A stretch of DNA of 49,818 nucleotides. Source: Oceanospirillaceae bacterium. Its GTDB lineage: Bacteria > Pseudomonadota > Gammaproteobacteria > Pseudomonadales > Balneatricaceae. Where the stretch lies: positions 1 to 49,818 of the forward strand of contig JABGSN010000060.1 in NCBI GenBank assembly GCA_018647765.1, given 5' to 3'. The notes under the pieces are model-generated. The model worked only from the letters and a program-made list of their open reading frames with translations. It was not told the DNA's origin and did not search any database. The position numbers and the translations under genes are program-made. This document shows, piece by piece, positions 12,016 through 45,030 of this stretch. Numbering within the stretch: the stretch's first letter is position 1; every line of letters begins with the position of its first letter.

Positions 12016-12140
12016 GCCATGTGGCAAGTGCTCTTGGTAGCGATAACACAGCCACTATAGAACACTCAATTAAATAACCATTTAACCGCCTAATAACCAA
12101 ACGTTAACCAGTGAAGTTACATCCAATTAATTGCTTAGCT

Positions 12141-15109: not shown

Positions 15110-15159
15110 TTAAATCTCCGCATCAAACCACATAAGCAGTTTGATTTCTAGTTGGGGCA

Positions 15160-15198
15160 AAAAAAGGGCCAACCGCTAGACGGTGTCTAGCGGTTGGC
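15160..15198 (-). terminator. Rho-independent terminator between tctC and the dehydrogenase
   Basis: A perfect 14-base inverted repeat (GCCAACCGCTAGAC, 15168-15181, with its complement at 15185-15198) surrounds a 3-base loop. On the minus strand the stem is followed by CC and seven T residues. This is a textbook intrinsic terminator in the transcription direction of tctC, 42 bases after its stop. It should end or attenuate the transporter transcript, leaving the enzyme pair on readthrough or on its own promoter. Confidence 0.88.
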
Positions 15199-15239
15199 AC
15201 CAAGTCTTACAGGGGTGCTACTAGGTTACTGCAAAAAAA

Positions 15240-16214
15240 TTACAGGTCCGACAAGAGCTCAGTAAGATAGGCTTGACGCTCTACCCACATTTGCTTCACT
15301 TCAGCCCGCGTCATAATACGCATTGGCGAACCACCGGCCTTCATTTTGCCGGCGACTTTAGCGTCTTGGAACATTAAATGTACACGTTCTGCCAAGAACT
15401 CGATGACTTCAGGTGGCGTGCCTTTTCGGGCCATGATGCCGCGAAAGTTAACACTGGAGTCATCTATCTCAATACCTTGCTCTTTAAAGGTCGGCACGTC
15501 TGGCAAGAAGCCTTCTTCACGTTGGTTGTCTGCTACGGCAAGAATCTTAATACGATCACCTTGACGGAAAGCATCACTTAAGTTGTTGAAGCCAGCCATT
15601 ACCTGGCTACCCAACACCATTTTCATTGCGGCTACACCACCACCAGCTGGGATGTACTTAGTGCTAATGTCTGCAGCTTTATCCAGCTGCAAGCTAGCAA
15701 TATGATGGCCCACATATAAGCCAGCGCCACTCACGGTCAACTTACCTGGGTTAGCTTTTGACCAAGCCACAAGATCCGTTGCCGAATTAAATGGGCTGTC
15801 TGCAGGTACAATCAGTACCGCTGGATCAGCACCCCAGTTGGCAATAGGTTCTAAGTTTCCTGTGTTATATGAAGTGTCAAACTTCAGCGATTGCGCAATA
15901 AAGTGCGGTACGTTGTAGGCCGCCAATTGGTGGCCGTCTTTGCTGGCGTCGCTGGCGTACCAGTTCCAGCCTTTTTGACCCCCTGCACCGGGCTTGTTAA
16001 AAATCACCATCGGCATATTAAGGTATTTTTCTTTACCCGCCATCATGGTCACAATACGTGCTTGGAAGTCCGTTGCGCCACCCGGACCATAGGCTACTGC
16101 CACTTGGATAGGTGCACTGGGGTAATCATCAGCCAACACGGTGGCACTGGGCACTAACAACAGCGAGGTCACTGCGGCTGTTACTAAGGACGATTTTATT
16201 TTTTTTAGTATCAT
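15240..16214 (-). CDS. TTT-family substrate-binding protein (TctC/Bug type)
   Basis: A 324-residue periplasmic solute receptor of the tripartite tricarboxylate transporter family. The signal peptide is clear (MILKKIKSSLVTAAVTSLLL ... VLA, then DDYPSAPIQV). VAYGPGGATDFQAR forms the carboxylate-binding loop typical of Bug proteins, followed by VIFNKPGAGGQKGW. I chose ATG 16214 because AAGG lies upstream with good spacing and it starts the signal peptide neatly; an ATG at 16229 would add MKVRP. It follows the TctAB gene on the same transcript and delivers the ligand, a small carboxylate, possibly sulfoacetate by context. Confidence 0.92.
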   Translation of the reverse strand: MILKKIKSSLVTAAVTSLLLVPSATVLADDYPSAPIQVAVAYGPGGATDFQARIVTMMAGKEKYLNMPMVIFNKPGAGGQKGWNWYASDASKDGHQLAAYNVPHFIAQSLKFDTSYNTGNLEPIANWGADPAVLIVPADSPFNSATDLVAWSKANPGKLTVSGAGLYVGHHIASLQLDKAADISTKYIPAGGGVAAMKMVLGSQVMAGFNNLSDAFRQGDRIKILAVADNQREEGFLPDVPTFKEQGIEIDDSSVNFRGIMARKGTPPEVIEFLAERVHLMFQDAKVAGKMKAGGSPMRIMTRAEVKQMWVERQAYLTELLSDL

Positions 16215-30488: not shown

Positions 30489-32051
30489 TTAGTAATCGCC
30501 CTCAATGGGTTCCAACTGTGGCTCTGAACGACCCAAACTTTGTTTACGATTAGCCACATAGGCCTCGAGTTCTTCTTGTCGTTCTGGCGCGATCGGAGGC
30601 GGTTCGAACTCTGCCAAAATTTTCTGCCAAATTTCCGTGGCTCGCATAGTGGCGTCTTTGGATCCGGCCTCAACCCAGCTTTCATGGTTTTTCCAGTCGC
30701 TTAAAAAGGGTTGGTAAAAGGCGCTTTGGTATCGCTCCATGGTATGGCTACAACCAAAAAAGTGCCCCCCTGGGCCCACTTCTTCCATGGCTTCAAGGCC
30801 AATTTCAATTCGGTCAATTTTAAGCGGCTGTAGCATGGCCGTCATGTGTTGCAGCATTTCACAATCCATAATGATTTTTTCGAATGAAGCCACCAAGCCC
30901 CCTTCTAACCAACCGGCGGCATGATAAATTAAGTTGCCATGGCCCATAACGGAGCCCCACAGAGCCATTTGGGTTTCGTACACTGCCTGGCCATCCACGG
31001 CATTGGAGGCGTTACACGCACTAGTGCGATATGGCAAATTGTAGCGCCGCGCCATTTGTCCACTGGCCATGTTGGCCAAACAATTTTCTGGGGTGCCAAA
31101 GGCTGGGGCCCCAGAGCGCATGTCAACGTTGGAGGTAAACCCGCCGTAAACCACCGGCGCGCCGGCTTTGGTTAACTGCACTAATGCTATACCTAATAAA
31201 GCTTCAGCATTTTGTTGGGCTAAGGCTGCAGCCATGGTGGTCGGCGTCATAGCTCCCATTAAGGTAAACGGAGTCACGGTAACGGCCTGACCCATCTTGG
31301 CCATTTGCATGGCCCCATAAGCCATACTGTCGTCTAGTTTACGGGGTGAATTAATGTTGATGTTGGTCATGGTTGCAGGCTGTTGCGCCAACTGATGCAA
31401 GCTCATGCCGTTGGCAATGGCGTTCATTTCTACCGCATCTTTAACTCGACCTGCACCGATGCCTTGGGCAAAAAATACCTTATCGGCTAAGGTTAGGTTG
31501 ACGAAGGTGGTGTCTAAGTGTCGTGAATTGGGTGGTAGGTCTGTGGGGGCAACCGCCTGATTGCCAAAAAAATCAATGACGTTGAAATACTGACCAAAAC
31601 GGATCATGTGCTTATAGTCAGCAAAGTTACCAATGCGGCGACCGTTAACGCAGTCGTGCACGTTGGGTGGGCCCGAGGTTAAACCAAACTGAATAATATT
31701 GGACCCCACTTGCAACGCATTGGCTGAGTTGCGTGGTGTTAAGGTAAATTGCGCAGGCGCTGTGCTAATAATCTCCAGCACCAAAGCGCGATCCATACGT
31801 ACAATGCCACCTTCATCAACCTCCGCGCCAGCCTGCTTAAATAGGTCTAATGCTTGTTGGCCCATCACCTCAACACCCAGTTGCTCAAGGATGTCCATAG
31901 AGGCATTATGAATCAATTCAACCTGCTCTGGCTCCAAAGCAGCAATGGGTGCAAACCGATTAGTTTTGACCTGCCTTTCAAGCTGGGGTATAGCGCAAGG
32001 GGCGAGTGTTTGCGGTGTAACTCTACGACGGCGGCCAGCGGAACGACTCAT
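30489..32051 (-). CDS. MttB superfamily (trimethylamine methyltransferase family) protein, non-pyrrolysine type
   Basis: A 520-residue protein with an MttB-family TIM barrel. LIHNASMDILEQLGVEVMGQQA is the N-terminal family signature; FGLTSGPPNVHDCVNGRRIG, GGFTSNVDMRSGAPAFGTPE and EEVGPGGHFFGCSHTMER are further conserved stretches. The frame is continuous with no in-frame TAG, so it lacks pyrrolysine. Non-Pyl members demethylate quaternary amines such as glycine betaine, proline betaine or carnitine, passing the methyl group to a corrinoid protein. No corrinoid protein or partner methyltransferase is in the window. AGGT precedes the ATG. It diverges from a GlxA/AraC-type regulator, supporting an N-methylated substrate. 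Confidence 0.88.
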   Translation of the reverse strand: MSRSAGRRRRVTPQTLAPCAIPQLERQVKTNRFAPIAALEPEQVELIHNASMDILEQLGVEVMGQQALDLFKQAGAEVDEGGIVRMDRALVLEIISTAPAQFTLTPRNSANALQVGSNIIQFGLTSGPPNVHDCVNGRRIGNFADYKHMIRFGQYFNVIDFFGNQAVAPTDLPPNSRHLDTTFVNLTLADKVFFAQGIGAGRVKDAVEMNAIANGMSLHQLAQQPATMTNININSPRKLDDSMAYGAMQMAKMGQAVTVTPFTLMGAMTPTTMAAALAQQNAEALLGIALVQLTKAGAPVVYGGFTSNVDMRSGAPAFGTPENCLANMASGQMARRYNLPYRTSACNASNAVDGQAVYETQMALWGSVMGHGNLIYHAAGWLEGGLVASFEKIIMDCEMLQHMTAMLQPLKIDRIEIGLEAMEEVGPGGHFFGCSHTMERYQSAFYQPFLSDWKNHESWVEAGSKDATMRATEIWQKILAEFEPPPIAPERQEELEAYVANRKQSLGRSEPQLEPIEGDY

Positions 32052-32185
32052 TAATTTTACCTGTGGCCTCGCACTTAGACCGTGATTTTAGGGTTGGTGA
32101 ACGGCAGGTTAGCATCACACGCAGACCAACAAGGATACTAACTCGACAAAAAGCGGACTATACTAACCAAGACAAAGGATTAACT

Positions 32186-33145
32186 ATGCCGCCAAAACAC
32201 CCAAACCAGCCAACACGAATTGGTTTTTTCTTAATCGCTCAGTTTTCTATGCTGTCCATGTCGGCAGCCGTTGAACCGTTAAGAATTGCAAACCGCTTAA
32301 GTAAACAACCCCTGTACGAGTGGTTTTTTTACAGCAAAGAGTCACAGCCTGTGCCTGCCAGCAACGGGGTAGAAGTTGCTACTACCCGCGACATGACGAA
32401 TACCGCCGATCTAGATGCCCTCATCGTGGTGGCCGGCATCGACGTACAAAATCACGACGACCCAGGCCTCAACCAATGGCTTAGGCAGTTGTCACGCAAA
32501 TCCATCACCCTTGGGTCTACCTCTACAGGCAGCTTGTTGTTGGCTCGGGCTAAATTACTGCAACACAGCCCCTGCACCATTCACTGGGAAAACATCGATA
32601 GTTTTCGGGAAGAATTTCCCCTACTGGATGTTAGCGGTGAGTTGTTTGAAATGGATGACCGGTTTATGACCTGTTCTGGGGGTTTGTCGGGTCTGGACAT
32701 GATGCTCCAACTCATCACGCAACAACACGGCCTACAATTAGCCAAGGACGTGGCCGAACAATGTATCCACCCGAGTATTAGAGACGCTCATGCGCACCAG
32801 CGCATGGCCACTCAAAGTCGGCTTAGTATTCATCACCCAAGCTTAATTAGCGCTGTTGAGTTGATGCAAAGCCACACGGAAGAACCACTGCCATTAGCTC
32901 AATTAGCCACACAGGCTGGGCTGTCATTGCGTCAAATGGAGCGCTTATTTAAACACCACTTTGGCCAAAGACCAGCGCTATATTACCTCGATATACGGCT
33001 TAACAAAGCCCAAAGCCTGCTGCGGCAAACTAGCCTTTCCACGTTTGAAATTGCCACCGCCTGTGGCTTCAACTCCACCTCATATTTGGCTAAACGGTAC
33101 CGTTTAAAGTTTGCCATTACGCCCCGTCAAGAACGCCTAGCCTGA
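32186..33145 (+). CDS. GlxA/AraC-type transcriptional regulator (DJ-1/PfpI-like domain plus AraC helix-turn-helix)
   Basis: A 319-residue activator. Residues ~10-180 form a DJ-1/PfpI-like amidotransferase fold (IGFFLIAQFSMLSMSAAVEP, LDALIVVAGID, HWENIDSFREEFP, MTCSGGLSGLDMMLQLI). Residues ~220-315 form the AraC HTH pair (LAQLATQAGLSLRQMERLFK, ATACGFNSTSYLAKRYR). This is the GbdR/CdhR/ArgR-type class that controls betaine, carnitine, choline and amino-acid catabolism. ATG 32186 has AAAGGAT upstream; a longer frame from 32063 adds 41 unrelated residues. It is divergent from the MttB gene and upstream of the ABC operon, both likely targets. Confidence 0.9.
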   Translation: MPPKHPNQPTRIGFFLIAQFSMLSMSAAVEPLRIANRLSKQPLYEWFFYSKESQPVPASNGVEVATTRDMTNTADLDALIVVAGIDVQNHDDPGLNQWLRQLSRKSITLGSTSTGSLLLARAKLLQHSPCTIHWENIDSFREEFPLLDVSGELFEMDDRFMTCSGGLSGLDMMLQLITQQHGLQLAKDVAEQCIHPSIRDAHAHQRMATQSRLSIHHPSLISAVELMQSHTEEPLPLAQLATQAGLSLRQMERLFKHHFGQRPALYYLDIRLNKAQSLLRQTSLSTFEIATACGFNSTSYLAKRYRLKFAITPRQERLA

Positions 33146-33264
33146 TTTCAATAATCATTGACAGTCTTCCAAACGATCTGTTACAACTTAAAAGGACTTG
33201 GAGTAAGCAATTAACTCTGAGCAGTTTTTAGCGTGTATTGATCGGTCCGCAACGGCCCGCTTTT

Positions 33265-33282
33265 GCCTATCTAAATATAGGC
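33265..33282. promoter_or_regulatory. Inverted repeat upstream of the peptide-type ABC operon
   Basis: GCCTAT and ATAGGC flank CTAAAT, about 92 bases upstream of the binding-protein start. A TTGACA-like hexamer lies further upstream near 33159. Nine of ten bases of GCCTATCTAA recur just upstream of the convergent hydroxylase operon (43691-43700), so it may be a shared control site. The evidence is thin. Confidence 0.3.
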
Positions 33283-33373
33283 TAATCCGTTGTATTTCGG
33301 TGTGAAAAGAGACCTAGTGTTAGGCCTGCTATTGTACCTTGCCGTTCAGAAAAATCATCACCGGAGAATAATA

Positions 33374-35026
33374 ATGATTAAGTCCACTATTGCAGGTAAA
33401 ACGACTCATCCCGTCGTTGACATGTATAAAAATGAGTTTTTGCAGGGCCAACTTTCACGTCGTGAATTTTTAGTGCGTGCCTCTGCTTTAGGTGCCAGCA
33501 CCGCTGCGGCCTACGGCATGATTGGTTTAGTTGCGCCCATGGCCATGGCTGCCACCCCATCTATGGGTGGCACCTTGCGTATTCAACAGGAAGTACGGGC
33601 CATGAAAGACCCGCGCACCTATGACTGGAGCCAAATTGCTAACTTTAGCCGTGGCTGGCTAGAATACCTAGTGCGGATAAACCGTGACGGTACATTTGAA
33701 GGCCAGTTACTTGAAAGCTGGGCCGCCAATGATGATGCCACAGTCTACACACTAAAAGTGCGCCAAGGCGTGACTTGGAACAACGGTGATGCGTTCACTG
33801 CCGAGGACGTAGCACGTAACATTACTGGTTGGTGTGACAAGAGTATGGAAGGTAATTCCATGGCCGGTCGTATGAACTCATTAATCGATGCCGATACCGG
33901 CCAAGCTCGTGCCGGCGCTATTGAAGTCGTAGATAGCCATACGGTTAATTTAAACCTGCTTACACCCGACATTTCAATCATCCCAGGTATGACGGATTAC
34001 CCCGCAGCCATTGTGCATGCAAGCCATGACAGCGACAAGATGATTAGCAATCCTGTTGGCACTGGACCCTATTTACCAGAAAGCTTAGAAGTCGGTGTTA
34101 AAGCCGTACTCGTACGTAACGAAGCTCACGCTTGGTGGGGCCAAGGCGCGTACGTTGATCGTATTGAATACCTAGACTATGGCACTGACTATGGCTCTAT
34201 TGTGGCGGGTGCAGAAGCCGACGAATTTGATATGACCTATGATGTGTCTGGTGAGTTTATCGAAATTTTTGACAGTTTAGATTGGACTCAATCAGCAGCA
34301 GTGACGGCGGCGACCATCGTTATTCGCCCTAACCAAGAAGCCGAAGTAGATGGCATCAAACCTTATGCTGACAAACGAGTGCGTCAGGCCTTGGCGATGG
34401 CTGTAGACAACAGCATATGTCTAGAGTTGGGTTACTCAAGCCGTGGTACAACTGCAGAAAACCACCATGTTTGCCCTATTCACCCTGAATATGCCGCTTT
34501 ACCGGCCCAGAAAGTGGACGGTGCTGCCGCTAAGGCCTTAATGGAAGAAGCCGGCATGGGTGACTATGAACATGAGCTAATTTCTATTGACGATGATTGG
34601 CGCCGTAACACCACCGATGCCGTTGCCGCGCAATTGCGTGAAGCAGGCATTAAGGTTAAACGCACCATCTTACCGGGTTCTACTTTTTGGAATGACTGGG
34701 CTAAATACCCATTCTCTTCCACTAACTGGAATCAACGTCCTTTGGGAGTGCAGGTGCTAGCATTAGCCTACCGCAGTGGCGAGGCGTGGAACGAAGCAGG
34801 TTTCTCTAACGAAGAGTTTGATCGCTTGTTATCCCAAGCCATGGCTATTCCTGATGCCGATAAACGTCGTAAAATTATGGCCAAACTAGAGGCCATCATG
34901 CAGGACGAAGGCGTTATTATTCAGCCTTATTGGCGCTCTTTGTATCGCCACAACAAGCCTGGTTTAGTGAATGCCGAAATGCATCCTGGTTTTGAAATCC
35001 ATGTGGATCAAATAGGCTGGTCTTAA
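33374..35026 (+). CDS. ABC transporter substrate-binding protein, family 5 (peptide/opine type), Tat-exported
   Basis: A 550-residue SBP_bac_5 family receptor. It has a twin-arginine signal with [10 protein letters not shown] at about 30-39 followed by a hydrophobic stretch ending APMAMAA, so it is exported folded. The mature protein has the typical [35 protein letters not shown], split across residues ~100-140, and a [11 protein letters not shown] segment. Family members bind peptides, opines, nickel or other cationic compounds. ATG 33374 follows CGGAGA; the upstream start at 33290 adds 28 residues before the Tat signal. It heads a five-gene operon. The ligand is unknown. Confidence 0.9.
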
Positions 35027-35034
35027 CCTTTATA

Positions 35035-35053
35035 AGGGCCACACTGTGGCCCT
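35035..35053 (+). other. Stem-loop after the binding-protein gene
   Basis: AGGGCCAC and GTGGCCCT form a perfect 8-base stem around ACT, 8 bases after the stop codon. There is no clear T-tract, so it is more likely to stabilise the receptor mRNA or attenuate than to fully terminate. The permease genes follow in the same direction. Confidence 0.6.
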
Positions 35054-35127
35054 CTATATTCTCTACAGAGTAGGTGTAACCTGCTCTGTGTTTATACTTC
35101 TCATCCTTAGTCATGGCAGGACTGCAC

Positions 35128-36168
35128 ATGTGGATATTTATTGTTAAGCGAACCGGCGTAATGGCGTTAACCGCGTTATGCCTCACCTTTTTGGTATTTT
35201 TCTTAACCAACTTGCAGCCCAATTTAGAAAAGCTAGCCAAGACTCAGGGCACCATGCGCATGTCCGACGAAGCGGTTGATCGTTGGCTGGAACAGCGGGG
35301 TTACAAACAGCCACTGTTAGTACGTTATGGTGAATGGCTGGGGGTGAGCCCTGGCTTCTTATTAGTCAAAGACAACGGTAAAACCTTAGGCCGATGTGTT
35401 AAGCCAGGCGCCGACCATATCCCAAATTATTGTGGCGTATTACAAGGCGATATGGGTTGGTCGACGGTATTTAAAGACCATGTCTCTAGCATTGTTAGTA
35501 AGCGGCTGGGGTTAACCGGCTGGCTCATGTTATTTGTAATGCTAGTGATGGTGCCCATGGCGCTAATCATTGGTGTATTGGCGGGTATGCGCGAAGGCTC
35601 CCGCACCGACCGCAGCTTATCCACCTTTGCCATTATCACTACCGCCACACCTGAGTACGTTTCGGGCGTGGTGTTTGTGGTGGTGTTCGCTAGCTCCGCA
35701 GTGGGGCTACGCTGGTTTAAAGGCTCTTCGGCTTCGGCTATGGATGACATCACCATTGCCAATTTTACCCTGCCGGTGATCACGATGGCCTTCTATGGCA
35801 TGGGCTACATTGCCCGTATGACTCGGGCCTCAATGGCCGAGGTAATGACCGCACAATACATTCGAACTGCCCGTTTGAAAGGAGTCAGCTTTACCAACAT
35901 CGTGCTAAAGCACGCATTGCGTAATGCCCTCATCGCGCCGTTTACGGTGATTATGTTGCAAATTCCGTGGCTGCTTACGGGTGTAGTGATTGTAGAAACC
36001 TTATTTAACTATAAGGGTTTTGGTTGGTTACTGGTGCAAGCCGCGTCCAACAACGACATCGACCTGCTCTTAGCATGCTCTATGGTTGCTGTATTCGTAG
36101 TGCTAGTGACACAGCTGATATCTGATATCGGTTATGTTTTCCTTAACCCACGTATTCGCATTAGTTAA
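35128..36168 (+). CDS. ABC transporter permease (DppB/OppB type)
   Basis: A 346-residue permease. The N-terminal membrane segment (WIFIVKRTGVMALTALCLTF) is followed by a ~90-residue periplasmic stretch containing two cysteines, then five segments with the docking loop RTARLKGVSFTNIVLKHALRNAL. The C-terminal VFLNPRIRI is typical of the DppB family. ATG 35128 has AGGA six bases upstream; ATG 35113 lacks a clear ribosome site. The long periplasmic insert resembles that of the YejB-like branch rather than classical DppB. Confidence 0.9.
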   Translation: MWIFIVKRTGVMALTALCLTFLVFFLTNLQPNLEKLAKTQGTMRMSDEAVDRWLEQRGYKQPLLVRYGEWLGVSPGFLLVKDNGKTLGRCVKPGADHIPNYCGVLQGDMGWSTVFKDHVSSIVSKRLGLTGWLMLFVMLVMVPMALIIGVLAGMREGSRTDRSLSTFAIITTATPEYVSGVVFVVVFASSAVGLRWFKGSSASAMDDITIANFTLPVITMAFYGMGYIARMTRASMAEVMTAQYIRTARLKGVSFTNIVLKHALRNALIAPFTVIMLQIPWLLTGVVIVETLFNYKGFGWLLVQAASNNDIDLLLACSMVAVFVVLVTQLISDIGYVFLNPRIRIS

Positions 36169-36178
36169 GGGGCCAACC

Positions 36179-37333
36179 ATGGAATCGTTATCTTCACTTC
36201 AAATAGCCATCAGCCTCCTGACTCAATTCCTACCGGTATGGGTAGGCTTAGGCATTATCATAAGTCTGTCTATGTATTACCGCCCTCACCTTGGCTTATA
36301 TGGCCACCTGTTTGATAGCCGGGTGGGCACTATAGGCTTGATACTGGTGCTTTTTTGGGTGTTAACCGCCCTGTTTGCCGACCTTATTATCACCCACGAC
36401 CCATTGGCCCAAATTTCGGGCATGAAAAACAAACGTCCAGGTTTTCCGGTGCGCGGGATGGAAGGCACCTTTTACCTATTAGGCGGCGACAACCTAGCCC
36501 GCGACATATTTTCACGGGTGATTATGGGCAGCCGTACCGTATTGTCCATTGCTCCTGCAGCCACCGTATTTGCCTTTATGGTAGGTATCACCTTGGGTTT
36601 ACCCGCCGGTTACCGCTCTGGAAGGCTCGATACCACCTTGTCTTTCTTGTCTAATTTAGTGCTGGCCTTCCCGGTCATTTTGTTGTTTTTCTTATTGGTG
36701 ACGCCAGAGATTCGTTCTACGGGTGTACCGATTTACTTGGCTGCGGTGTTGTTTTTATTCCCCATTATTTTGTTTGTGGTGTTGTTTCAATCGCGCTTTT
36801 ACACCCAGCCCACAAAGCGCAACATTTATGTATCCTTGGTATTAGTTATTGGTTTTTGGGCATATTCTGGACTGGCGTTTAACATGGACCCGTTGGGCGT
36901 GTTTTATATGGAACCGAACTTGCTAAACATCTTTGTGTCGGTGGTGTTTGTCAATGCCCCTACCGTATTCCGTATTGTTAGGGGCCTGACGTTAGACATT
37001 AAAACCCGTGATTATGTGGCCGCTGCCGAAACCCGAGGCGAAGGTCCTTGGTACATTATGTTATGGGAAATTCTACCCAACGCACGGGGGCCTTTGATTG
37101 TTGATTTTTGTTTGCGTATTGGTTACATCACGATATTACTAGGCACCTTAGGCTTCTTTGGCCTAGGCGTGAGCCCAGAAAGCCCGGATTGGGGCATGAC
37201 TATAAACGAGGGCCGCAAGCTCTTGTCGATCTACCCCCATCTCGCCATTCCTCCTGCTCTTGCGTTAATGTCGCTAGTGCTGGGCCTCAACCTGCTGGCC
37301 GACGGCCTGCGTGAACAGTCACTTAAAGACTAA
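36179..37333 (+). CDS. ABC transporter permease (DppC/OppC type)
   Basis: A 384-residue permease, longer than the usual ~300 of DppC. Two N-terminal hydrophobic segments precede LLGGDNLARDIFSRVIMGSRTVL, the conserved start of the transport domain. An extra hydrophobic pair (about 185-245) lies before the docking loop YVAAAETRGEGPWYIMLWEILPN. The end SLVLGLNLLADGLREQSL is typical. AAGGGG precedes ATG 36179, which I prefer to an in-frame start at 36134 inside the previous gene. Confidence 0.9.
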   Translation: MESLSSLQIAISLLTQFLPVWVGLGIIISLSMYYRPHLGLYGHLFDSRVGTIGLILVLFWVLTALFADLIITHDPLAQISGMKNKRPGFPVRGMEGTFYLLGGDNLARDIFSRVIMGSRTVLSIAPAATVFAFMVGITLGLPAGYRSGRLDTTLSFLSNLVLAFPVILLFFLLVTPEIRSTGVPIYLAAVLFLFPIILFVVLFQSRFYTQPTKRNIYVSLVLVIGFWAYSGLAFNMDPLGVFYMEPNLLNIFVSVVFVNAPTVFRIVRGLTLDIKTRDYVAAAETRGEGPWYIMLWEILPNARGPLIVDFCLRIGYITILLGTLGFFGLGVSPESPDWGMTINEGRKLLSIYPHLAIPPALALMSLVLGLNLLADGLREQSLKD

Positions 37334-37345
37334 GGGAGCAGGATT

Positions 37346-39427
37346 ATGCAACAGTGGGATTACGATGGCCCGATTTTAGAAATAGACAACCTGTCCATTA
37401 GCTTTTTTACCCGCCTCGGCGAGATACCCGCAGTGATGGACTTTTCGTGCGTGGTGGAACAAGGCAAAGCCGTAGGTTTAGTGGGCGAGTCTGGGTGTGG
37501 TAAGTCCACCGTAGCCCTTGGAGTCATGCAAGACCTTGGGGTCAACGGTAAGATTGTGGGTGGCAGTATTAAGTTTAAAGGCCGAGAGTTGAACACCATG
37601 AGTGATGAAGAACTGCGGCATTTGCGCGGCTCTGAAATCGCCATGATTTACCAAGAACCCATGGCGTCTCTTAATCCGGCGATGAAAATTGGCAAGCAGC
37701 TGATGGAAGTGCCCATAATCCATCAACAAAGCTCTGCAGAACAAGCCTTTGTTCTAGCTAAACAAGTGGTTGAGGATGTGCGTTTGCCCGATGCCGAGCG
37801 TATCTTAGACAGCTACCCACATCAGCTATCCGGCGGCCAGCAGCAGCGTATTGTTATTGCCATGGCGCTGATGTCTAAACCAGCATTACTAATTCTTGAC
37901 GAACCCACCACTGCATTAGACGTCACCGTTGAAGCGGGCATCGTTGATCTAGTCAAAGGTTTAGGTGAAAAATACGGCACCTCTATGCTGTTTATTTCCC
38001 ATAATTTGGGTTTGATATTAGAAACTTGCAACGATATTTGTGTCATGTACTCAGGCGAGGCGGTAGAGGTTGGACCCATTGAAAACGTGTTTGACCGCAT
38101 GCGCCACCCCTATACTCAAGCTTTGTTCCGCTCCATTCCATTACCCGGTGCCGACAAACAAAGCCGTCCCTTAGTTTCCATCCCTGGCAATTTTCCTTTA
38201 CCCCATGAACGGCCTAGCGGCTGTAACTTTGGCCCTCGCTGTAATTATTATGAACAGGGTCGCTGCAACAATGGCGACATTGCAATGCCGGCTTTGGCAG
38301 ATGATCCAAGCCATGCCTCACGTTGCTTAAAAGTAAGCGAAATCGATTGGGACCATCCCCCAGCTGCAGCGGCACAAACCCAGTCTAATAGCATTGGCAA
38401 ACTGGTGCTTAAGGTAGACAACCTACGCAAGTATTACGAAGTCGCAGCAAGCGCGCTGTTTGGTGGCCGAGATACCCGTGTGGTCAAAGCCAATGAAAAT
38501 GTTAGCTTTACCGCCCACGAGTCTGAAACTTTAGCCATTGTGGGTGAGTCTGGTTGTGGTAAATCCACCCTCGCCAAAGTACTACTAGGCCTAGAAGCGG
38601 CCTCCGACGGCAGTGTTAATTTGTTAGGCAAAGATATTCAAAAAACCCTCATTCATGATCGCGATGTGGATACTGTATCGTCGATTCAAATGGTATTCCA
38701 GAATCCGTTTGATACCCTCAACCCATCGATGACCGTAGGCCGCCAAATTGTACGGGCGTTAGAAGTATTTGGCATTTGTGCCAGTGAAAACGAACGTAAT
38801 AACAGAATGTTAGAGCTGCTTGACCTAGTTAAATTGCCGCGCGAATTTGCCGCCCGTAAACCTCGTCAATTGTCTGGCGGCCAAAAACAACGGGTGGGCA
38901 TTGCTAGAGCCTTTGCCGGCAACGCACAAGTAATGGTGGCCGATGAGCCAGTGTCTGCGTTGGATGTTTCGGTACAAGCCGCCGTTACCGATTTGTTAAT
39001 GGAATTGCAGCGCGACAACAAAACCACCATGCTGTTTATCAGCCATGACTTATCCATTGTGCGTTATATTTCTGACCGCGTGATGGTGATGTATTTGGGT
39101 CATGTGGTGGAAATGGGCACCACCGATCAGGTGTTTAGCCCACCGTACCACCCTTACACCGAAGCCCTGTTATCAGCAGTGCCGATTGCCGACACCAGCG
39201 TAGAACGTAAACACATTGTATTGGATGGCGACATTCCATCGGCCATGGATCCGCCTCCTGGTTGCCCTTTCCAAAGCCGTTGTCAGCACAAGCAGCAAGT
39301 GCCAGATAATTTATGTGAACGGGAGCTTCCGCCCATGAAACACATGGCCGAACATCATAATCTTAGGTGCCACCTCAGCGATGACTTCTTGGCCAGCATG
39401 ATTCCGGTAATTCAGCTATCAAGTTAA
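37346..39427 (+). CDS. ABC transporter ATPase, DppD-DppF fusion
   Basis: A 693-residue protein carrying both ATPase domains of a peptide-type importer. The first domain (about 1-330) has GESGCGKST, LSGGQQQRIVIAMALM and LLILDEPTTALDVT, then an oligo_HPY tail with CNFGPRCNYYEQGRC. The second (about 350-690) has GESGCGKSTLAKVLLGLE, LSGGQKQRVGIARAFAG and VMVADEPVSALDVSVQ, then CPFQSRCQHKQQVPDNLC. Both active sites look intact. It follows the permeases by 12 bases with good ribosome-binding sequence and completes the transporter without further subunits. Confidence 0.93.
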   Translation: MQQWDYDGPILEIDNLSISFFTRLGEIPAVMDFSCVVEQGKAVGLVGESGCGKSTVALGVMQDLGVNGKIVGGSIKFKGRELNTMSDEELRHLRGSEIAMIYQEPMASLNPAMKIGKQLMEVPIIHQQSSAEQAFVLAKQVVEDVRLPDAERILDSYPHQLSGGQQQRIVIAMALMSKPALLILDEPTTALDVTVEAGIVDLVKGLGEKYGTSMLFISHNLGLILETCNDICVMYSGEAVEVGPIENVFDRMRHPYTQALFRSIPLPGADKQSRPLVSIPGNFPLPHERPSGCNFGPRCNYYEQGRCNNGDIAMPALADDPSHASRCLKVSEIDWDHPPAAAAQTQSNSIGKLVLKVDNLRKYYEVAASALFGGRDTRVVKANENVSFTAHESETLAIVGESGCGKSTLAKVLLGLEAASDGSVNLLGKDIQKTLIHDRDVDTVSSIQMVFQNPFDTLNPSMTVGRQIVRALEVFGICASENERNNRMLELLDLVKLPREFAARKPRQLSGGQKQRVGIARAFAGNAQVMVADEPVSALDVSVQAAVTDLLMELQRDNKTTMLFISHDLSIVRYISDRVMVMYLGHVVEMGTTDQVFSPPYHPYTEALLSAVPIADTSVERKHIVLDGDIPSAMDPPPGCPFQSRCQHKQQVPDNLCERELPPMKHMAEHHNLRCHLSDDFLASMIPVIQLSS

Positions 39428-39445
39428 CAAAATGGATGTAGAAAT

Positions 39446-40444
39446 ATGTCGACTTTTAACGTTAACCTTTGCCACTGCAGTGCCGTTAGCCCTTATAATG
39501 ACATGATTGTGGATGATCCTGTATTCGATCCGTCTGTCCATCTTGCACTGGAAATGCCAGCCTACACTATTAGCATGACCGACTTAGGTTATGATGAAGA
39601 AGTACGAGCAAATACGCCCACCGATATAGCTGCAACAAGTTGCTTTCGCATATTAAGCGATGAAGGTGTCGCGGCCATGTACCATGTTTGCCAGCAGCTC
39701 GAAGCATTCACCACCTCCAATCCGCGCGTTGCCCGCAACACCCGAGGCGGCATTTACCGGTCTAATTTTTTACGCGACTTTAGTTGCAGTCCTGAGGTAG
39801 CAGCTCACCACAGCCAGATCATGAAAACCGAACTTACACCTTTAGCACTGGGACACAATTTGGCTCACGTGAACTACCCACCTCTTGAGTTAGGCAAAAA
39901 CATTGATAAATGGCATGTGGATACACTTCAAGTGGATACGGTGATGTTCGTCACTGACCCAAACCAAGTTGAGGGCGGAGAATTTCAGTATTTCAAAGGC
40001 ACCAAAGAGGATATCGCTAATTTACGTGACCTAGAGCAACCGATACCAACACATAAAATTATTACACCTCCAATAAAAGGTGCAGGCTATGCCGTCCTAC
40101 AGCAAGGTAACTACGTGGTGCACCAAGCTTCTGCCTTACGCACAGCAGGAGAGCGAATTACTTTAGTCAATGGCTATAGCTACGCCGACATGGCCTACCC
40201 AGATTACACCGCGGTAGGCCAGCTAATTCATGCTGACCCAGAAGAAGTGGTCGGGGCCGAATATTGCCACCACATGGCCTTGCGTATAGGTCGCCAATTA
40301 CAAGCTTTTACCAATCAGCCTAATTTTCAATTGAGCTTGCAGGCACAAGCAGAGAGCCTGCGAAAAGTGCAAACAGAGCTGCAACTAGCCATCGAACAGC
40401 TAGACAATGCTAGGGGTCAGGCAATGCACCATTTTGGTGATTGA
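39446..40444 (+). CDS. 2-oxoglutarate/Fe(II)-dependent oxygenase-like protein
   Basis: A 332-residue soluble protein with a jelly-roll 2OG/Fe(II) oxygenase signature. HxD is H157-V-D159 in DKWHVDTLQ, the distal histidine is H226 in GNYVVHQAS, and the 2-oxoglutarate arginine is R237 in GERITLVNGY. The GYAVLQQG turn is also typical. A charged helical, possibly coiled-coil, tail spans about 297-325. I cannot place it in a named substrate class. It is the last gene of the ABC operon, 18 bases after the ATPase, which suggests it acts on the imported compound. Confidence 0.78.
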   Translation: MSTFNVNLCHCSAVSPYNDMIVDDPVFDPSVHLALEMPAYTISMTDLGYDEEVRANTPTDIAATSCFRILSDEGVAAMYHVCQQLEAFTTSNPRVARNTRGGIYRSNFLRDFSCSPEVAAHHSQIMKTELTPLALGHNLAHVNYPPLELGKNIDKWHVDTLQVDTVMFVTDPNQVEGGEFQYFKGTKEDIANLRDLEQPIPTHKIITPPIKGAGYAVLQQGNYVVHQASALRTAGERITLVNGYSYADMAYPDYTAVGQLIHADPEEVVGAEYCHHMALRIGRQLQAFTNQPNFQLSLQAQAESLRKVQTELQLAIEQLDNARGQAMHHFGD

Positions 40445-40502
40445 AAAGTAAGCACCCTTAAATCAGCACCTCCTTTTACACAAGTATTGTATGGCGAATT
40501 TC

Positions 40503-40545
40503 CGCCCAACGCCGTTATGGGCGCAGCGAGTGCTTTGGGTACTCG
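40503..40545. terminator. Tandem hairpins between convergent operons
   Basis: CGCCCA/TGGGCG (40503-40523) and CGAGT/ACTCG (40527-40545) form two small stem-loops in the 133-base gap between the converging oxygenase and MmgE/PrpD genes. Neither has a long T-tract. They probably act as weak bidirectional ends. Confidence 0.4.
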
Positions 40546-40577
40546 TTGATCCTCACTAAAAGACAGCTGTGTGGTTG

Positions 40578-41909
40578 CTAAGCTCGGATGAGTGCTAACA
40601 AAGCAGCCAGATTACCCTCTTCCAACTGGTCTATATAATCCAACACCTGTTGGGCTTTGTTTGCACCCCAAACAGGCTCACACAGGTTCATGTATTTATC
40701 GTGAAACTGGGTTGAGCTCATGGGTTTATGGGGGTCGCCTAAGGCTTCGTGGGGCTCTGAACTTATTTGTGTGCCGTTGGCCATACGTATGTTCACGTGG
40801 GCCCAGCGCTCAGCCGGAAATACAGCGTTATAACCTGTGTCTTCCACTAACCTGACTTTAGAAAGCATGGCTTGTACCTGAGCATCCTCAAAGCCGTTAT
40901 ACACATCATCGGCACTAATAACGCCATTAAGCACAGCCATCGCTACAGGAAAACTAATGGCATACTGAGCTTGCTCGGTATTGCGTGGCACATCACTAAA
41001 CAACCTCACCCCTTGATGAAAAGTCGACACAGTAATTTGTTCTACCTGCGACGGGTCGAATTGATATTGCTCACGTAAACTCAAACACGCAGCCACCGCA
41101 GGCTGAGCCCAACGGCACACAGGATAAGGTTTGAAATACTGATTAAGAATCTGCCAGTGCTGACCCAAGTCTTGCCAATAACCCATGGCGTCATCACCTG
41201 TAATAGTGATCGCAGGTGCGCCAGTAAACCCTTCAGCCGCCAAATAGGCCGCCGAGGTGCCAGCTATAGCACCCCAACCCGAACCATCTTTAAGCATGGT
41301 GGGGTGATCGATGTTGCGCATCATCTGGCTACGTGGGCCATGATACTCAGCGATACCAACGGCATGGTCAAACTGTGCGTCGGTCAGCCCCAATACATGG
41401 GCCGTTATAGCGGCGCAATTGACTGCGCCCCAAGCGCCAGAAGTGTGATAATCAGGTACCGTTCCATGTAACGCCATGCCCACACGAGTGCCTATTTCAT
41501 AACCAGCAACAAGCAAACTAATAAGCGTTTTACCGGTCACCGGCTGAGCTTGGGATTCAAGTACGGCGATCAGGCTAGGCAATAAACTGCAGCCAACGTG
41601 GCCTTTGGTATCTCGCTGACCATCGTGACAATCTAAGGCGTCAATCATGGTCGCGCCAACCAGCGCAGCTCCCACGGGGCTCATGGCTGGGCCTCCCAAC
41701 AAGGGTTGCACGGCAGTGATGTTAACTCCAGCTGCAAAGTGGTCTTGCGCATGCCGAGTGATGATTGATGCTGTGGCCGAACGGGCGCCGCCTACCGCTG
41801 TGCCTAATAAGTCATAACAACACACTTTTGCTTGGGCTATGACGGCGGGTGGTAATTGTTCAAATTCAAGGGTTTGTAAAAACTGGCGCAGTGGGTGCCT
41901 GTTAACCAT
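40578..41909 (-). CDS. MmgE/PrpD family protein
   Basis: A 443-residue member of the 2-methylcitrate dehydratase / cis-aconitate decarboxylase / iminodisuccinate epimerase superfamily. Conserved stretches include DLLGTAVGGARSATA, ALVGATMIDALDCHDGQRDTKGHVGCSLLPSL and the histidine-rich ISTF-like region ITVSTFHQGVRLF. These enzymes dehydrate, decarboxylate or epimerise small carboxylic acids without metal. It is the third gene of a tight operon (4-base gap), acting downstream of hydroxylase and aldolase or on a side product. The true substrate is unknown. Confidence 0.9.
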   Translation of the reverse strand: MVNRHPLRQFLQTLEFEQLPPAVIAQAKVCCYDLLGTAVGGARSATASIITRHAQDHFAAGVNITAVQPLLGGPAMSPVGAALVGATMIDALDCHDGQRDTKGHVGCSLLPSLIAVLESQAQPVTGKTLISLLVAGYEIGTRVGMALHGTVPDYHTSGAWGAVNCAAITAHVLGLTDAQFDHAVGIAEYHGPRSQMMRNIDHPTMLKDGSGWGAIAGTSAAYLAAEGFTGAPAITITGDDAMGYWQDLGQHWQILNQYFKPYPVCRWAQPAVAACLSLREQYQFDPSQVEQITVSTFHQGVRLFSDVPRNTEQAQYAISFPVAMAVLNGVISADDVYNGFEDAQVQAMLSKVRLVEDTGYNAVFPAERWAHVNIRMANGTQISSEPHEALGDPHKPMSSTQFHDKYMNLCEPVWGANKAQQVLDYIDQLEEGNLAALLALIRA

Positions 41910-41913
41910 AGTA

Positions 41914-42978
41914 TTACCTATTAGCGAAAAAAGTCCTTATCGACTCTACCACTTGTTGTAGAGCCTCATCATCAACCTGCATATGTATGACAATTCGAGC
42001 ATTTTGGCCAATGGCCGTTATCGCAATGCCACATTGCGCTAGGTAGTCGGCTAAGGCGGGCATTTGTGCCGATTGTAAGAACAACATATTGGTTTGTACA
42101 CGAGCCATGTCAAAATTCAAACCGTCTACGCCTTCCAGCGCCACCGCAAGCTCTTTGGTACGGCGATGATCCTGCGCTAAACGCTCTATGTTGTTGTCCA
42201 ATGCATAACAGCCTGCCGCGGCAATAATGCCGGCTTGGCGCATGCCACCGCCTAACATTTTACGCAACCTGCGAGCCCTGTCTATCACCTCAGCAGGCCC
42301 CACTAATACCGAGCCTAGTGGCACACCTAAACCTTTAGATAAACATAAAGATACCGTGTCGATGGATTGTACTAAACGGGCTGGGGGTAGATTTTGGGCC
42401 ACCGCAGCATTGAGTAACCGTGCGCCGTCCATATGTGTCGCCAAGCCGTGTTGTTGGGCGCACTCAGCCAAGGTATCAATGTGGCTTTGGTCTTGAATAC
42501 AGCCCGATACGGTATTTTCTAAGCACAACAGTCGCGTCATAGGGCAATGGTAGTCGTTGGGTTTTATGGCTGCCGTCATTTGCTCAACTTCAAAACGTCC
42601 AAACACGTCGGTGCTTAACGCATGTATCGCCACACTGCCCAGCACTGCAACACCTGCCGCTTCATCGCAGCTAATATGGTATTGCTCACCCACCAATACT
42701 TCTTCTCCACGTTGGCAATGGGCCAATACGCTTGCTAAGTTACTCATGGTACCGCTAGGCAAAAATAAACCCATTTGTTTGCCTAACAAATGCGCCGTTT
42801 GCTGCTCTAGGGCATTAACATTGGGATCATCACCATAAACATCGTCGCCTACTTGCGCTTCTGCCATCACTTGACGCATGGCTGCACTAGGTTGCGTCAC
42901 TGTATCGCTACGTAAATCTATCGTTACCGGAACCGTCGCTTGGCCTCTGTCTTCTGCTAAGGGATAGTGTGTAGCCAT
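41914..42978 (-). CDS. Threonine aldolase family PLP enzyme (low-specificity L-threonine aldolase type)
   Basis: A 354-residue fold-type I PLP enzyme. DLRSDTVTQPSAAMR opens the domain, VGDDVYGDDPNVNALE follows, and THMDGARLLNAAVAQN holds the PLP aspartate. The Schiff-base lysine is K215 in LCLSKGLGVPLGS. Threonine aldolases split beta-hydroxy-alpha-amino acids into glycine and an aldehyde, and the family includes the aldolase acting on 3-hydroxytrimethyllysine. Here it directly follows a 2OG/Fe(II) hydroxylase (3-base gap), so its substrate is probably the beta-hydroxy amino acid made by that enzyme rather than threonine. Confidence 0.92.
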   Translation of the reverse strand: MATHYPLAEDRGQATVPVTIDLRSDTVTQPSAAMRQVMAEAQVGDDVYGDDPNVNALEQQTAHLLGKQMGLFLPSGTMSNLASVLAHCQRGEEVLVGEQYHISCDEAAGVAVLGSVAIHALSTDVFGRFEVEQMTAAIKPNDYHCPMTRLLCLENTVSGCIQDQSHIDTLAECAQQHGLATHMDGARLLNAAVAQNLPPARLVQSIDTVSLCLSKGLGVPLGSVLVGPAEVIDRARRLRKMLGGGMRQAGIIAAAGCYALDNNIERLAQDHRRTKELAVALEGVDGLNFDMARVQTNMLFLQSAQMPALADYLAQCGIAITAIGQNARIVIHMQVDDEALQQVVESIRTFFANR

Positions 42979-42981
42979 AGT

Positions 42982-43674
42982 TTAGTCCTTGTTACCTAAT
43001 GCTTGAGCGTCACTGACCTGCTGACCAGCGTACGGAAGTGCAGCCACAATGTGTACACGAGAATCTTCACCACCGTTAAGGGCTGTGTGATAACCCCGAG
43101 TATCGGTGAAATACACCGACCCGTCCGCGGGTAGATGGGTGCAATGATGATTCACGATAAACAAAGAACCGGGATTAGTAAAAATAGGAATGTGTAGGCG
43201 CGGCTCGGGATCTCGGTGCCAAGAATTGCAGTTGTAGGGGTCCTTACCCAACACCCGCATACGGCCGATAGGAAAGCGAGCAATGAGCTGCGTATAAACC
43301 TCGGCTAAATAGGTGCCTGCAAACAGTGGATTAAATTCACTGTAAGCCGATTCGTCCACCATCACATCGCGTGGAAATTCGGTATAGCTATCATCTACCC
43401 GAGTCCAAAAACGGCCGCAGTTATCCTCTGGTGTGGCCTTCTCCACGCCCGGGCGACGAGTAAGCGCCATCACATGAAAACCCGAACCTAGGTCTTCTAG
43501 CTGGTGCTGCATATCACGGTAACACTGTTGTAACTTATCGATATCAAACTTTAGCTGCAGCTTTTGAATACCGGGACCGGCTTTAAAACTTGCTACCGAC
43601 TCGGTGTCGTAGGGACTTTCAAGCCAAGCTTGCATTTGCTCGCTATCAATTTTAGTGGAGCCAATGGGCGACAT
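42982..43674 (-). CDS. 2OG/Fe(II) hydroxylase of the aspartyl/asparaginyl beta-hydroxylase type
   Basis: A 230-residue cytosolic oxygenase. Iron ligands are H153 and D155 in SWHRDPEPR and H196 in TRGYHTALNGG. R206 in SRVHIVAAL should bind the 2-oxoglutarate carboxylate. The HRDxxxRLHIPI pattern belongs to the Asp/Asn beta-hydroxylase-like superfamily, whose bacterial members hydroxylate free amino acids or peptides. A strong AGGAGG ribosome site lies before the ATG at 43674. It is the first gene of the hydroxylase-aldolase-PrpD operon and would insert the beta-hydroxyl needed for aldolase cleavage. The amino-acid substrate cannot be deduced. Confidence 0.85.
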   Translation of the reverse strand: MSPIGSTKIDSEQMQAWLESPYDTESVASFKAGPGIQKLQLKFDIDKLQQCYRDMQHQLEDLGSGFHVMALTRRPGVEKATPEDNCGRFWTRVDDSYTEFPRDVMVDESAYSEFNPLFAGTYLAEVYTQLIARFPIGRMRVLGKDPYNCNSWHRDPEPRLHIPIFTNPGSLFIVNHHCTHLPADGSVYFTDTRGYHTALNGGEDSRVHIVAALPYAGQQVSDAQALGNKD

Positions 43675-44174: not shown

Positions 44175-44862
44175 TGAATTGGCTTTGACCATCGTATGCT
44201 AGTGGTCAACAACAAACTTGTGGCCGAAGCTGACGTCGATGAAAATACCGTACTACCGGATGACGAGGTATACTATTTGCGTGACATGGCGGTACGAGCC
44301 ATTATGTGCGTGGATTTAGATGTGGGTGGAGTGGATTTTCTCACCGACGATATTAGCCGTCCCTACAAAGAAATTGGCGGCGCCATTGTTGAAGTCAACG
44401 CCGCACCGGGTTTCCGTATGCACGTAGCGCCGAGCGAGGGCACACTTAGAGACGTGTCGGGCAAAATCATCGAGATGTTATTCCCACCTTCAGCGTTAAC
44501 ACAAATTCCTATTGCTGCCATTACCGGCATCAACGGTAAAACCACCACCTCGCGCATGTTAGATCACATCATGAAAGCCAGCGGCCATACGGTGGGCATG
44601 ACCTCTACCGGCGGTGTTTATGTGGATGGCAAACTCAGTGTTAAAGGCGATATGACGGGGCCAGCTTCTGCACAAATCGTATTACAGGATCCTACCGTGG
44701 ACTTTGCGGTGATGGAGACCGCCCGTGGCGGCCTATTGCGTAGCGGTTTAGGTTACCAAAGCTCCGACGTAGCGGTCTGCCTTAACGTCACCTCCGACCA
44801 CCTCGGTTTAGGCGGTATTGATACTGTGGAGCAGCTGGCTATGGTAAAACGTGTGGTGGTCA
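44175..44862 (+). pseudogene. cphA: Cyanophycin synthetase (cphA) remnant
   Basis: The open frame from ATG 44196 is a shortened internal piece of CphA, which polymerises aspartate and arginine into cyanophycin. FDHRMLVVNNKLVAEA is the ATP-grasp strand, GGAIVEVNAAPGFRMHVAPS is its end, and ITGINGKTTTSRMLDHIMK is the P-loop of the Mur-ligase-like domain, followed by ETARGGLLRSGLGY and NVTSDHLGLGGIDT. A complete CphA is about 870 residues. Here the N-terminal domain, the part between the first strand and VLPDDEVYYLRD, and the whole C-terminal third are missing. At about 44862 the frame runs into an unrelated membrane segment. It is clearly non-functional as a synthetase. Confidence 0.88.
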
Positions 44863-45030
44863 CCATAGTGGTGGTGCTTTTAGGTTATTGGATGGGCAGC
44901 TATTTTATCGGCGCGCGTATTTGGTTGGCCGCCCGTGGAGAGTTACCCAGCTCCTTAGTAGCGGTATTGTTAGCCGTAATCTTAGGGGTGATGTGTGCAG
45001 CGTTAATGACCAGCGTGCCCATGCGGCAAA
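44863..45030 (+). pseudogene. Membrane-protein C-terminal fragment fused to the cphA remnant
   Basis: The frame continues without a stop from the cphA remnant into two hydrophobic segments (TIVVVLLGYWMGSYFIGARI and SLVAVLLAVILGVMCAALMT) joined by WLAARGELPSS. This looks like the end of a polytopic membrane protein but I cannot name its family. Past ~45030 the frame runs antisense into the sulfatase gene, so the original end is lost. A deletion between two genes best explains the fusion. Confidence 0.6.

What the first reader, a model, noticed from the sequence alone, without database searches (positions are those of the whole stretch)
30489..43674. Candidate undescribed catabolic system: MttB protein, GlxA-type regulator, peptide-type ABC importer, two 2OG oxygenases, threonine aldolase and MmgE/PrpD
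Seen: ten intact genes between two unrelated regions, arranged as mttB <- / -> regulator, a five-gene ABC-plus-oxygenase operon, and a facing three-gene hydroxylase-aldolase-PrpD operon. Known: GlxA/AraC regulators of this class control betaine, carnitine and amino-acid catabolism; non-Pyl MttB proteins demethylate quaternary amines; 2OG hydroxylation then threonine-aldolase-type cleavage is how trimethyllysine becomes glycine plus trimethylaminobutyraldehyde. Inferred: the locus imports an N-methylated amino acid or small peptide, beta-hydroxylates it, splits off glycine and processes the remainder. The corrinoid protein for MttB and an aldehyde dehydrogenase are not in the window.
Basis: partly seen in the sequence, partly recalled or inferred. 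Interest (0 to 1): 0.85.

Follow-up and report, generated by a model that had tools for sequence, protein, structure and literature searches.

The report
Marine methylated amino acid degradation locus
A marine bacterium carries a ten-gene locus that probably imports a nitrogen-methylated amino acid such as trimethyllysine, clips off glycine and strips a methyl group with a vitamin B12-linked enzyme; its core enzyme pair recurs in other ocean bacteria, but the substrate is unproven.

Summary
The ten genes are real, intact and correctly placed, and not a chance neighbourhood. The hydroxylase-aldolase pair is adjacent in 25 of 28 related loci from Oceanospirillaceae, the SUP05 group and Alphaproteobacteria. 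A close relative of the family-5 importer is present in 4 loci, an unrelated polar-amino-acid importer in 13, a close mttB in 5; 13 of 28 hold some candidate N-demethylating enzyme, but none was found in the 14 SUP05-group loci. MttB occurs in 17 of 17 hydroxylase genomes tested, against 22 of 369 in a class sample. The corrinoid protein missing from the window lies elsewhere in the genome with a folate methyltransferase and reactivase; the genome has seven MttB proteins. Best reading: import of a cationic amino acid methylated on its side chain, most likely trimethyllysine; beta-hydroxylation; cleavage to glycine and a quaternary aldehyde; oxidation; B12-dependent demethylation. All chemistry is inferred. 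The second oxygenase looks accessory; PrpD is unexplained. A different bacterial trimethyllysine route (DavB/DavA) is in print; I found none of this kind. New variant of a known kind.

The parts
30489..32051 (-). mttB: non-pyrrolysine MttB-family methyltransferase, 520 aa, 'clade D' of my tree
   Evidence: PF06253 639 bits; trimethylamine methyltransferase model below cut-off, 297 of 525; PDB glycine betaine methyltransferase 9yce 5.6e-83; tree; no in-frame stop
32052..32185 (.). divergent region between mttB and the likely regulator start; an island around TTGTCGA is conserved in L006-L009
   Evidence: alignment read by eye; no binding shown
32063..33145 (+). GlxA/AraC-type regulator, GbdR-like (true start probably near 32186)
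   Evidence: kin in 7 of 28 loci
33290..35026 (+). family-5 solute-binding protein (true start probably near 33374)
   Evidence: SBP_bac_5 186 bits; 72-87% kin in L006, L008, L009, L028, a 26% one in L011
35113..36168 (+). ABC permease 1
36134..37333 (+). ABC permease 2
37346..39427 (+). fused double ATP-binding protein, Dpp/Opp type
39446..40444 (+). putative Fe(II)/2-oxoglutarate oxygenase (ogo7); probably accessory, role unknown
   Evidence: HxD...H pattern; no family match; in 6 of 369 class genomes and 4 of 19 hydroxylase genomes; model failed
40578..41909 (-). MmgE/PrpD-family protein, role unknown
   Evidence: whole or partial kin in 8 of 28 loci; prpD-mttB pair in L102
41914..42978 (-). 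PLP aldolase of the GntG / low-specificity threonine aldolase families
   Evidence: alignment A2, K215 and H101 invariant in 13 sequences; only match in this genome at E 1e-20
42982..43674 (-). AspH/Cpz10-type non-haem iron hydroxylase, probable amino-acid beta-hydroxylase

Best explanation
The locus imports and breaks down a free alpha-amino acid whose side-chain nitrogen is methylated, most likely N6,N6,N6-trimethyllysine. Proposed order: (1) the family-5 ABC system imports it; (2) the AspH/Cpz10-type hydroxylase puts an OH on the beta carbon; (3) the PLP aldolase splits this into glycine and a quaternary aldehyde (4-trimethylaminobutyraldehyde if the substrate is trimethyllysine); (4) an aldehyde dehydrogenase encoded elsewhere here, but next to the pair in some relatives, makes the betaine acid (gamma-butyrobetaine); (5) MttB moves one methyl group to the genome's single MtgC-type corrinoid protein and on to tetrahydrofolate, with a RamA/RACo-type reactivase; (6) flavin demethylases and an aldehyde dehydrogenase finish the job. 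The GbdR-like regulator would sense the compound. Shown by sequence: gene families, conserved hydroxylase-aldolase pairing, the conserved iron triad, different importers and demethylases beside the pair, presence of the corrinoid machinery. Inferred: every reaction, the order and the substrate.
For: Hydroxylase-aldolase adjacency in 25 of 28 loci; of 22 genomes searched 21 hold an aldolase relative, adjacent in 18. A threonine-type PLP aldolase needs a beta-hydroxy amino acid with a free alpha-amine, so methyls should be on the side chain (established enzymology). Nearest fold is Cpz10, a beta-hydroxylase of an amino-acid moiety (PMC9814697 abstract and passages), and its iron triad is conserved. 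Importers differ: close kin of the family-5 system in 4 loci, a polar-amino-acid system in 13 (51-63% identical between Oceanospirillaceae and SUP05 where whole), no locus with both within the fetched stretches; the SUP05 receptor matches Gln, opine and Lys/Arg/Orn receptors in PDB. Candidate N-demethylating enzymes in 13 of 28 loci: MttB in 9, Rieske in L018, L021 and L027, a DMGDH-like fragment in L031; also sarcosine oxidase in L012 and L018, DAO in L012, L018, L027. ALDH directly beside the aldolase in L010 and L027 and, in fragments, L033 (best models BADH and HpaE, below cut-off). MttB in 17 of 17 hydroxylase genomes given, against 22 of 369. In L104, a genome stretch without the hydroxylase, a 59% mttB sits by an OpuAC-type quaternary-amine importer and MtgC/MtgD/RamA relatives. 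Threonine aldolases have hydroxytrimethyllysine aldolase side activity and a Pseudomonas has the aldehyde dehydrogenase (PMC8085414 passages); an MttB protein demethylates gamma-butyrobetaine (PMC8604678 abstract).
Against: No assay exists. The pair is rare: own genome only among 293 of the order, 3 of 369 of the class, one of them weak. None of my reference demethylases lies in the 14 SUP05-group loci or in L014 (not every neighbour there was annotated). In G480 the hydroxylase (64%; flags one TGA in the match) has no aldolase within the 40 kb fetched; the genome's only relative is 38% identical on another contig. L011 and L018 also lack it in place. Of nine other class genomes with a 55% or better match to this mttB only G480 has a hydroxylase hit, so this mttB has uses without the pair. 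L011 puts an arginase-family gene before the hydroxylase. L025 and L026 hold Opp/Dpp-type ATPases about 8 kb from the pair besides the amino-acid importer, and L011 a distant family-5 receptor and permease. ogo7, which I set aside, also tracks MttB: 4 of its 6 class genomes are MttB-positive. No ALDH is in the ten genes; PrpD has no place in the scheme; no shared operator was seen.
Confidence: 0.4

Rival explanations
1. Same architecture, other substrate: a guanidino or other cationic amino acid (arginine, methylarginine) is beta-hydroxylated and cleaved to glycine plus a guanidino aldehyde; MttB serves a neighbouring betaine.
For: Arginase-family gene directly upstream of the hydroxylase in L011; receptor of the alternative importer resembles Lys/Arg/Orn and opine receptors among others; the aldolase scores highest with the GntG family, which by recall works with a hydroxylase on a guanidino amino acid in guanitoxin biosynthesis.
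Against: Only 1 of 28 loci has an arginase relative; candidate N-demethylating enzymes occur in 13; bacteria have simpler arginine routes (recall).
Confidence: 0.15
2. The methyls are on the alpha-nitrogen (a betaine of an ordinary amino acid): MttB and the oxidases demethylate it first, and the hydroxylase and aldolase then cleave the freed amino acid.
For: MttB, Rieske and DMGDH/sarcosine-oxidase-type enzymes often act on alpha-N-methyl compounds (recall); DAO and sarcosine oxidase lie in L012 and L018.
Against: No secondary-amine oxidase is among the ten genes; the importer of 13 loci is of the amino-acid, not the quaternary-amine, type; the freed amino acid would usually have cheaper routes.
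Confidence: 0.15
3. Two independent catabolic units share a neighbourhood: hydroxylase-aldolase for one compound, and MttB, importer, regulator and PrpD for another.
For: This mttB type occurs without the hydroxylase, and regulator, prpD and mttB form a unit alone in L102; SUP05-group loci hold the pair without mttB.
Against: mttB, hyd and ald run in one direction with 32-33 bp between mttB and hyd in L006-L009 (for L006 and L007, for the rest); the pair meets a 70% mttB in the unrelated NORP44 locus L012 and the family-5 importer in Thioglobus L028; between close relatives the pair changed place inside this locus yet stayed in it.
Confidence: 0.2

Closest known systems
Eukaryotic trimethyllysine-to-gamma-butyrobetaine route (TMLH, HTML aldolase, TMABA-DH), first part of carnitine biosynthesis
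   Same: Same predicted logic: 2OG hydroxylation at the beta carbon, PLP aldolase giving glycine and an aldehyde, dehydrogenase to the betaine (PMC7764450 and PMC8085414, passages)
   Different: Hydroxylase is AspH/Cpz10-type, not the BBOX type (that TMLH is BBOX-like is recall); bacterial, presumably catabolic, clustered with importer and B12-linked demethylase; substrate unproven
Gut-bacterial DavB/DavA conversion of trimethyllysine to delta-valerobetaine (PMC11773067, passages)
   Same: Bacterial use of trimethyllysine as an enzyme substrate
   Different: Lysine 2-monooxygenase and an amidase; no glycine release, other product; neither enzyme was sought or seen here
MtgBCD(E) glycine betaine demethylation of marine bacteria (PMC12478193)
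   Same: Relatives of MtgC, MtgD, RamA and DUF1638 in this genome; the paper notes up to seven pfam06253 ORFs per genome, and this genome has seven
   Different: This mttB falls outside the clade of the C54 MttB, which stands beside an MtgE-like gene (MtgE-like is by eye), and sits with a hydroxylase, aldolase and importer
MtyB gamma-butyrobetaine:corrinoid methyltransferase (PMC8604678, abstract)
   Same: MttB superfamily; predicted substrate
   Different: From an anaerobic acetogen; sequence not compared here
Cpz10 of caprazamycin biosynthesis
   Same: Closest solved sequence and fold, iron triad conserved
   Different: Acts on a nucleoside amino-acid intermediate; about 30% identical
Guanitoxin GntG aldolase family
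   Same: Aldolase passes the NF041359 cut-off; hydroxylase-aldolase logic (recall)
   Different: Biosynthetic (recall); this aldolase also passes the threonine aldolase model and matches L-allo-threonine aldolase 3wgb at 1.8e-100

Membership tests
MttB superfamily, non-pyrrolysine quaternary-amine type | Full-length MTTB domain without in-frame amber codon | tested here: met
MttB superfamily, non-pyrrolysine quaternary-amine type | Corrinoid protein, THF-type methyltransferase and reactivase in the genome | tested here: met
   B12-binding, Pterin_bind, RACo and DUF1638 genes on contig C38; that they serve this MttB is inference
MttB superfamily, non-pyrrolysine quaternary-amine type | Demethylates a quaternary amine | not testable with these tools
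   needs an assay
AspH/Cpz10-type hydroxylase | Sequence and fold match to Cpz10/AspH, iron triad present | tested here: met
   Cpz10 5.6e-21; Foldseek 7v4m 2.7e-13, AspH 6yyy 3.1e-4; H153, D155, H196 align with His115, Asp117, His160
AspH/Cpz10-type hydroxylase | Passes Pfam PF05118 cut-off | tested here: not met
   window protein 15.1 bits against 22.6; 20 of 21 members match at E up to 1
Trimethyllysine hydroxylase of the BBOX/TauD type | BBOX/TauD-type sequence | tested here: not met
   no Pfam match at 0.001; no BBOX among PDB hits of either oxygenase at E up to 10
GntG / low-specificity threonine aldolase | Passes curated model, PLP lysine present | tested here: met
   (that K215 is the PLP lysine is by motif)
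GbdR regulator | Passes NF052371 cut-off | tested here: not met
   317 bits against 480; GbdR-like only
Trimethyllysine degradation pathway | Growth on, or turnover of, trimethyllysine | not testable with these tools
   needs culture or enzymes
2-methylcitrate dehydratase PrpD | Passes prpD equivalog model | tested here: not met
   TIGR02330 22.7 bits against 458

The most novel reading that the evidence does not exclude
An unrecognised marine bacterial route that degrades free trimethyllysine (from algae and protein turnover) to glycine and gamma-butyrobetaine with a hydroxylase unrelated to the eukaryotic enzyme, then demethylates it through the shared B12 protein that also serves methionine synthesis, giving one of the many orphan MttB proteins of ocean bacteria a substrate.
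Probability: 0.33. Interest if true: 0.75.

Novelty: new variant of a known kind. Interest (0 to 1): 0.6.

Why it matters
Marine bacteria often carry several MttB-family genes, up to seven in the report I read (PMC12478193, Discussion), mostly without an assigned substrate. A locus that joins one of them to an importer and a glycine-releasing hydroxylase-aldolase pair gives a concrete, testable guess. If right, methylated lysine joins glycine betaine as a B12-dependent food source for SUP05 and other ocean bacteria, and the first half of the carnitine pathway has a bacterial, non-homologous counterpart.

Tried and rejected
Peptide substrate: set back, not excluded, because a polar-amino-acid ABC system accompanies the pair in 13 of 28 loci and the close family-5 system in 4. 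Second oxygenase (ogo7) as a core enzyme: set aside on distribution, although it tracks MttB in the class sample (4 of 6); no mttB, hydroxylase, aldolase or prpD relative lies near it in the stretches fetched around seven of its other copies (L106-L109, L184-L186) or beside L187. Copies in viral contigs: 74 pattern matches, none confirmed. Plasmid copies of hydroxylase or ogo7: one weak Streptomyces hit each. Common operator: none seen by eye. Fold of ogo7: model useless. A bacterial hydroxylase-aldolase route for trimethyllysine: none seen in the papers listed by searches, of which 42, 69, 71, 98 and 99 listed only 20 of 43, 20 of 26, 20 of 23, 10 of 17 and 10 of 25; one listed paper describes another bacterial trimethyllysine route (PMC11773067). 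Trimethyllysine was not among the passages found in PMC8269262 and PMC10579395.
Full report
Observation. Spacing supports a transporter-oxygenase unit on the plus strand and a hydroxylase-aldolase-PrpD unit on the minus strand. The flanks look unrelated.

Conservation. The hydroxylase is rare: only the own genome among 293 of the order and 3 of 369 of the class (own, G480, and a weak 39% match over 63 residues in G434). A scan of genome contigs gave 28 loci, named as Oceanospirillaceae, Aliamphritea, SUP05/Thioglobus and kin, Kordiimonadaceae and other Alpha- and Gammaproteobacteria. The aldolase follows the hydroxylase in 25 of 28 (cut by the contig end in L021, split into two frames in L023); in L016 the contig ends about 160 bases after the hydroxylase; L011 and L018 lack it in place. 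Of 22 genomes searched, 21 hold an aldolase relative, adjacent in 18; in those of L011, L018 and G480 it lies elsewhere, in G480 at only 38% identity; G434 has none. Many loci are near relatives, so these are not 28 independent events; I count at least three settings (Oceanospirillaceae, SUP05 group, Alphaproteobacteria).

Neighbours (within the fetched stretches of the 28 loci, many cut by contig ends). Close mttB in 5 (L006-L009 88-89%, L012 70%), another MttB in 4 (L010, L011, L032, fragments in L033); Rieske proteins in L018, L021, L027; a DMGDH-like fragment in L031: in all 13 loci with a candidate N-demethylating enzyme. The other 15 are the 14 SUP05-group loci and the short L014; not every neighbour there was annotated. 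PrpD whole or partial in 8; regulator in 7; close family-5 importer in 4 and a distant one in L011; the polar-amino-acid importer in 13 (receptor in fragments in L033), never with the close family-5 one. L025 and L026 also hold Opp/Dpp-type ATPases about 8 kb away. In L007, a close relative, regulator and PrpD gene are direct neighbours, the family-5 operon that sisters have between them is missing, and the amino-acid importer lies beyond PrpD. L028 (Thioglobus) holds hydroxylase, aldolase, PrpD, regulator (34%) and a family-5 importer 70-78% identical to the window's, in another order. In L006-L009 mttB, hydroxylase and aldolase run in one direction; in the window the pair lies at the other end of the same locus. 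L027 has a Rieske pair (GbcA-like 512 bits of 670, GbcB-like 212 of 500), DAO, ALDH and PrpD; L012 and L018 have DAO and sarcosine oxidase. L018 is labelled PS1 clade but its hydroxylase is SUP05-like, so that bin may be mixed.

Corrinoid system. The genome's only B12-binding-domain match lies on contig C38 with DUF1638, a pterin-binding methyltransferase, a RACo-type reactivase, FolD and SHMT and a regulator 47% identical to the window's. The set resembles that reported for MtgBCD in Ruegeria pomeroyi (PMC12478193; passages and Discussion read). The genome has seven MttB proteins. MttB occurs in 17 of 17 hydroxylase genomes given and in 22 of 369 of the class sample, own genome included; all three genomes with a hydroxylase hit in that sample are among the 22 (hypergeometric p 1.9e-4; without the own genome p 0.003). 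Kinship and shared habitat could explain part of this. ogo7 also tracks MttB (4 of 6, p 1.3e-4; without the own genome 3 of 5, p 0.0015).

MttB tree. A quick maximum-likelihood tree (97 rows) puts the window protein with L006, L007, L009, L012 and class genomes, apart from the clade of the C54 protein beside an MtgE-like gene (by eye). A neighbouring clade holds the own C56 protein and members from 9 of 10 SUP05-group genomes given. Of nine other class genomes with a match of 55% or more to this mttB, one (G480) has a hydroxylase hit, so this MttB probably serves a compound that can also be obtained otherwise. In L104 a 59% mttB stands by an OpuAC quaternary-amine importer; in L102 a 64% one follows prpD and a regulator.

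Hydroxylase. Closest in sequence and fold to Cpz10 (model pLDDT 75.5), then L-proline cis-4-hydroxylase and AspH; below the Pfam cut-off for PF05118. H153, D155 and H196, nearly invariant in 21 sequences, align with the Cpz10 iron triad His115, Asp117, His160, and R206 with Arg170.

Mechanism and limits. The chain import, beta-hydroxylation, aldol cleavage, oxidation, corrinoid demethylation follows from families and neighbours; none of it was assayed. Trimethyllysine is the best guess because it is cationic, has a free alpha-amine, yields glycine and a betaine by exactly this chemistry in eukaryotes (PMC7764450 and PMC8085414, passages), and its betaine product is a known MttB-family substrate (PMC8604678, abstract). 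The own genome has 22 Aldedh matches, one 65% identical to the SUP05 SSADH-like protein, but nothing ties it to this locus. PrpD and the second oxygenase remain unexplained.

Novelty. Each enzyme kind is known. Bacterial conversion of trimethyllysine is known by another route, DavB/DavA to delta-valerobetaine (PMC11773067, passages). The combination seen here and the non-BBOX hydroxylase in this role look new; my searches (partly listed, open-access library only) showed no report of it.

Noticed in passing
L066 (G000:C16) 7792-9512: TmpB and TmpA relatives (E 1e-75 and 2e-139) a few kb from another MttB and a dimethylglycine-dehydrogenase-like gene: likely trimethylaminoethylphosphonate use.
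   Followed up: partly
L067 (G000:C49) 5979-15510: MttB with a PhyH-type oxygenase, DHDPS-family, ALDH, DAO and a large FMN oxidoreductase: looks like a hydroxyproline-betaine type locus (reading by recall).
   Followed up: partly
window 44196-45143: Protein with a partial Mur-ligase middle domain and an unrelated-looking tail, perhaps a remnant of a cyanophycin-synthetase-like gene (name recalled).
   Followed up: no
G000:C56, L068 3096-9413: Sister-clade MttB with DAO, DMGDH-like and arginase-family genes; this MttB type recurs in 9 of 10 SUP05-group genomes given.
   Followed up: partly
L018 and L190: In this MAG a 141-aa gene like the one before the SUP05 hydroxylase stands directly beside the aldolase, while the hydroxylase lies on another contig beside a Rieske protein and sarcosine oxidase; relocation or mixed bin.
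   Followed up: partly
L033 (Aliamphritea spongicola): Many short adjacent ORFs where relatives have whole genes, suggesting frameshift errors or decay.
   Followed up: no
L011 8940-13938: Arginase-family gene directly upstream of the hydroxylase, with an aminotransferase class IV and an MttB beside a DMGDH-like gene downstream.
   Followed up: partly
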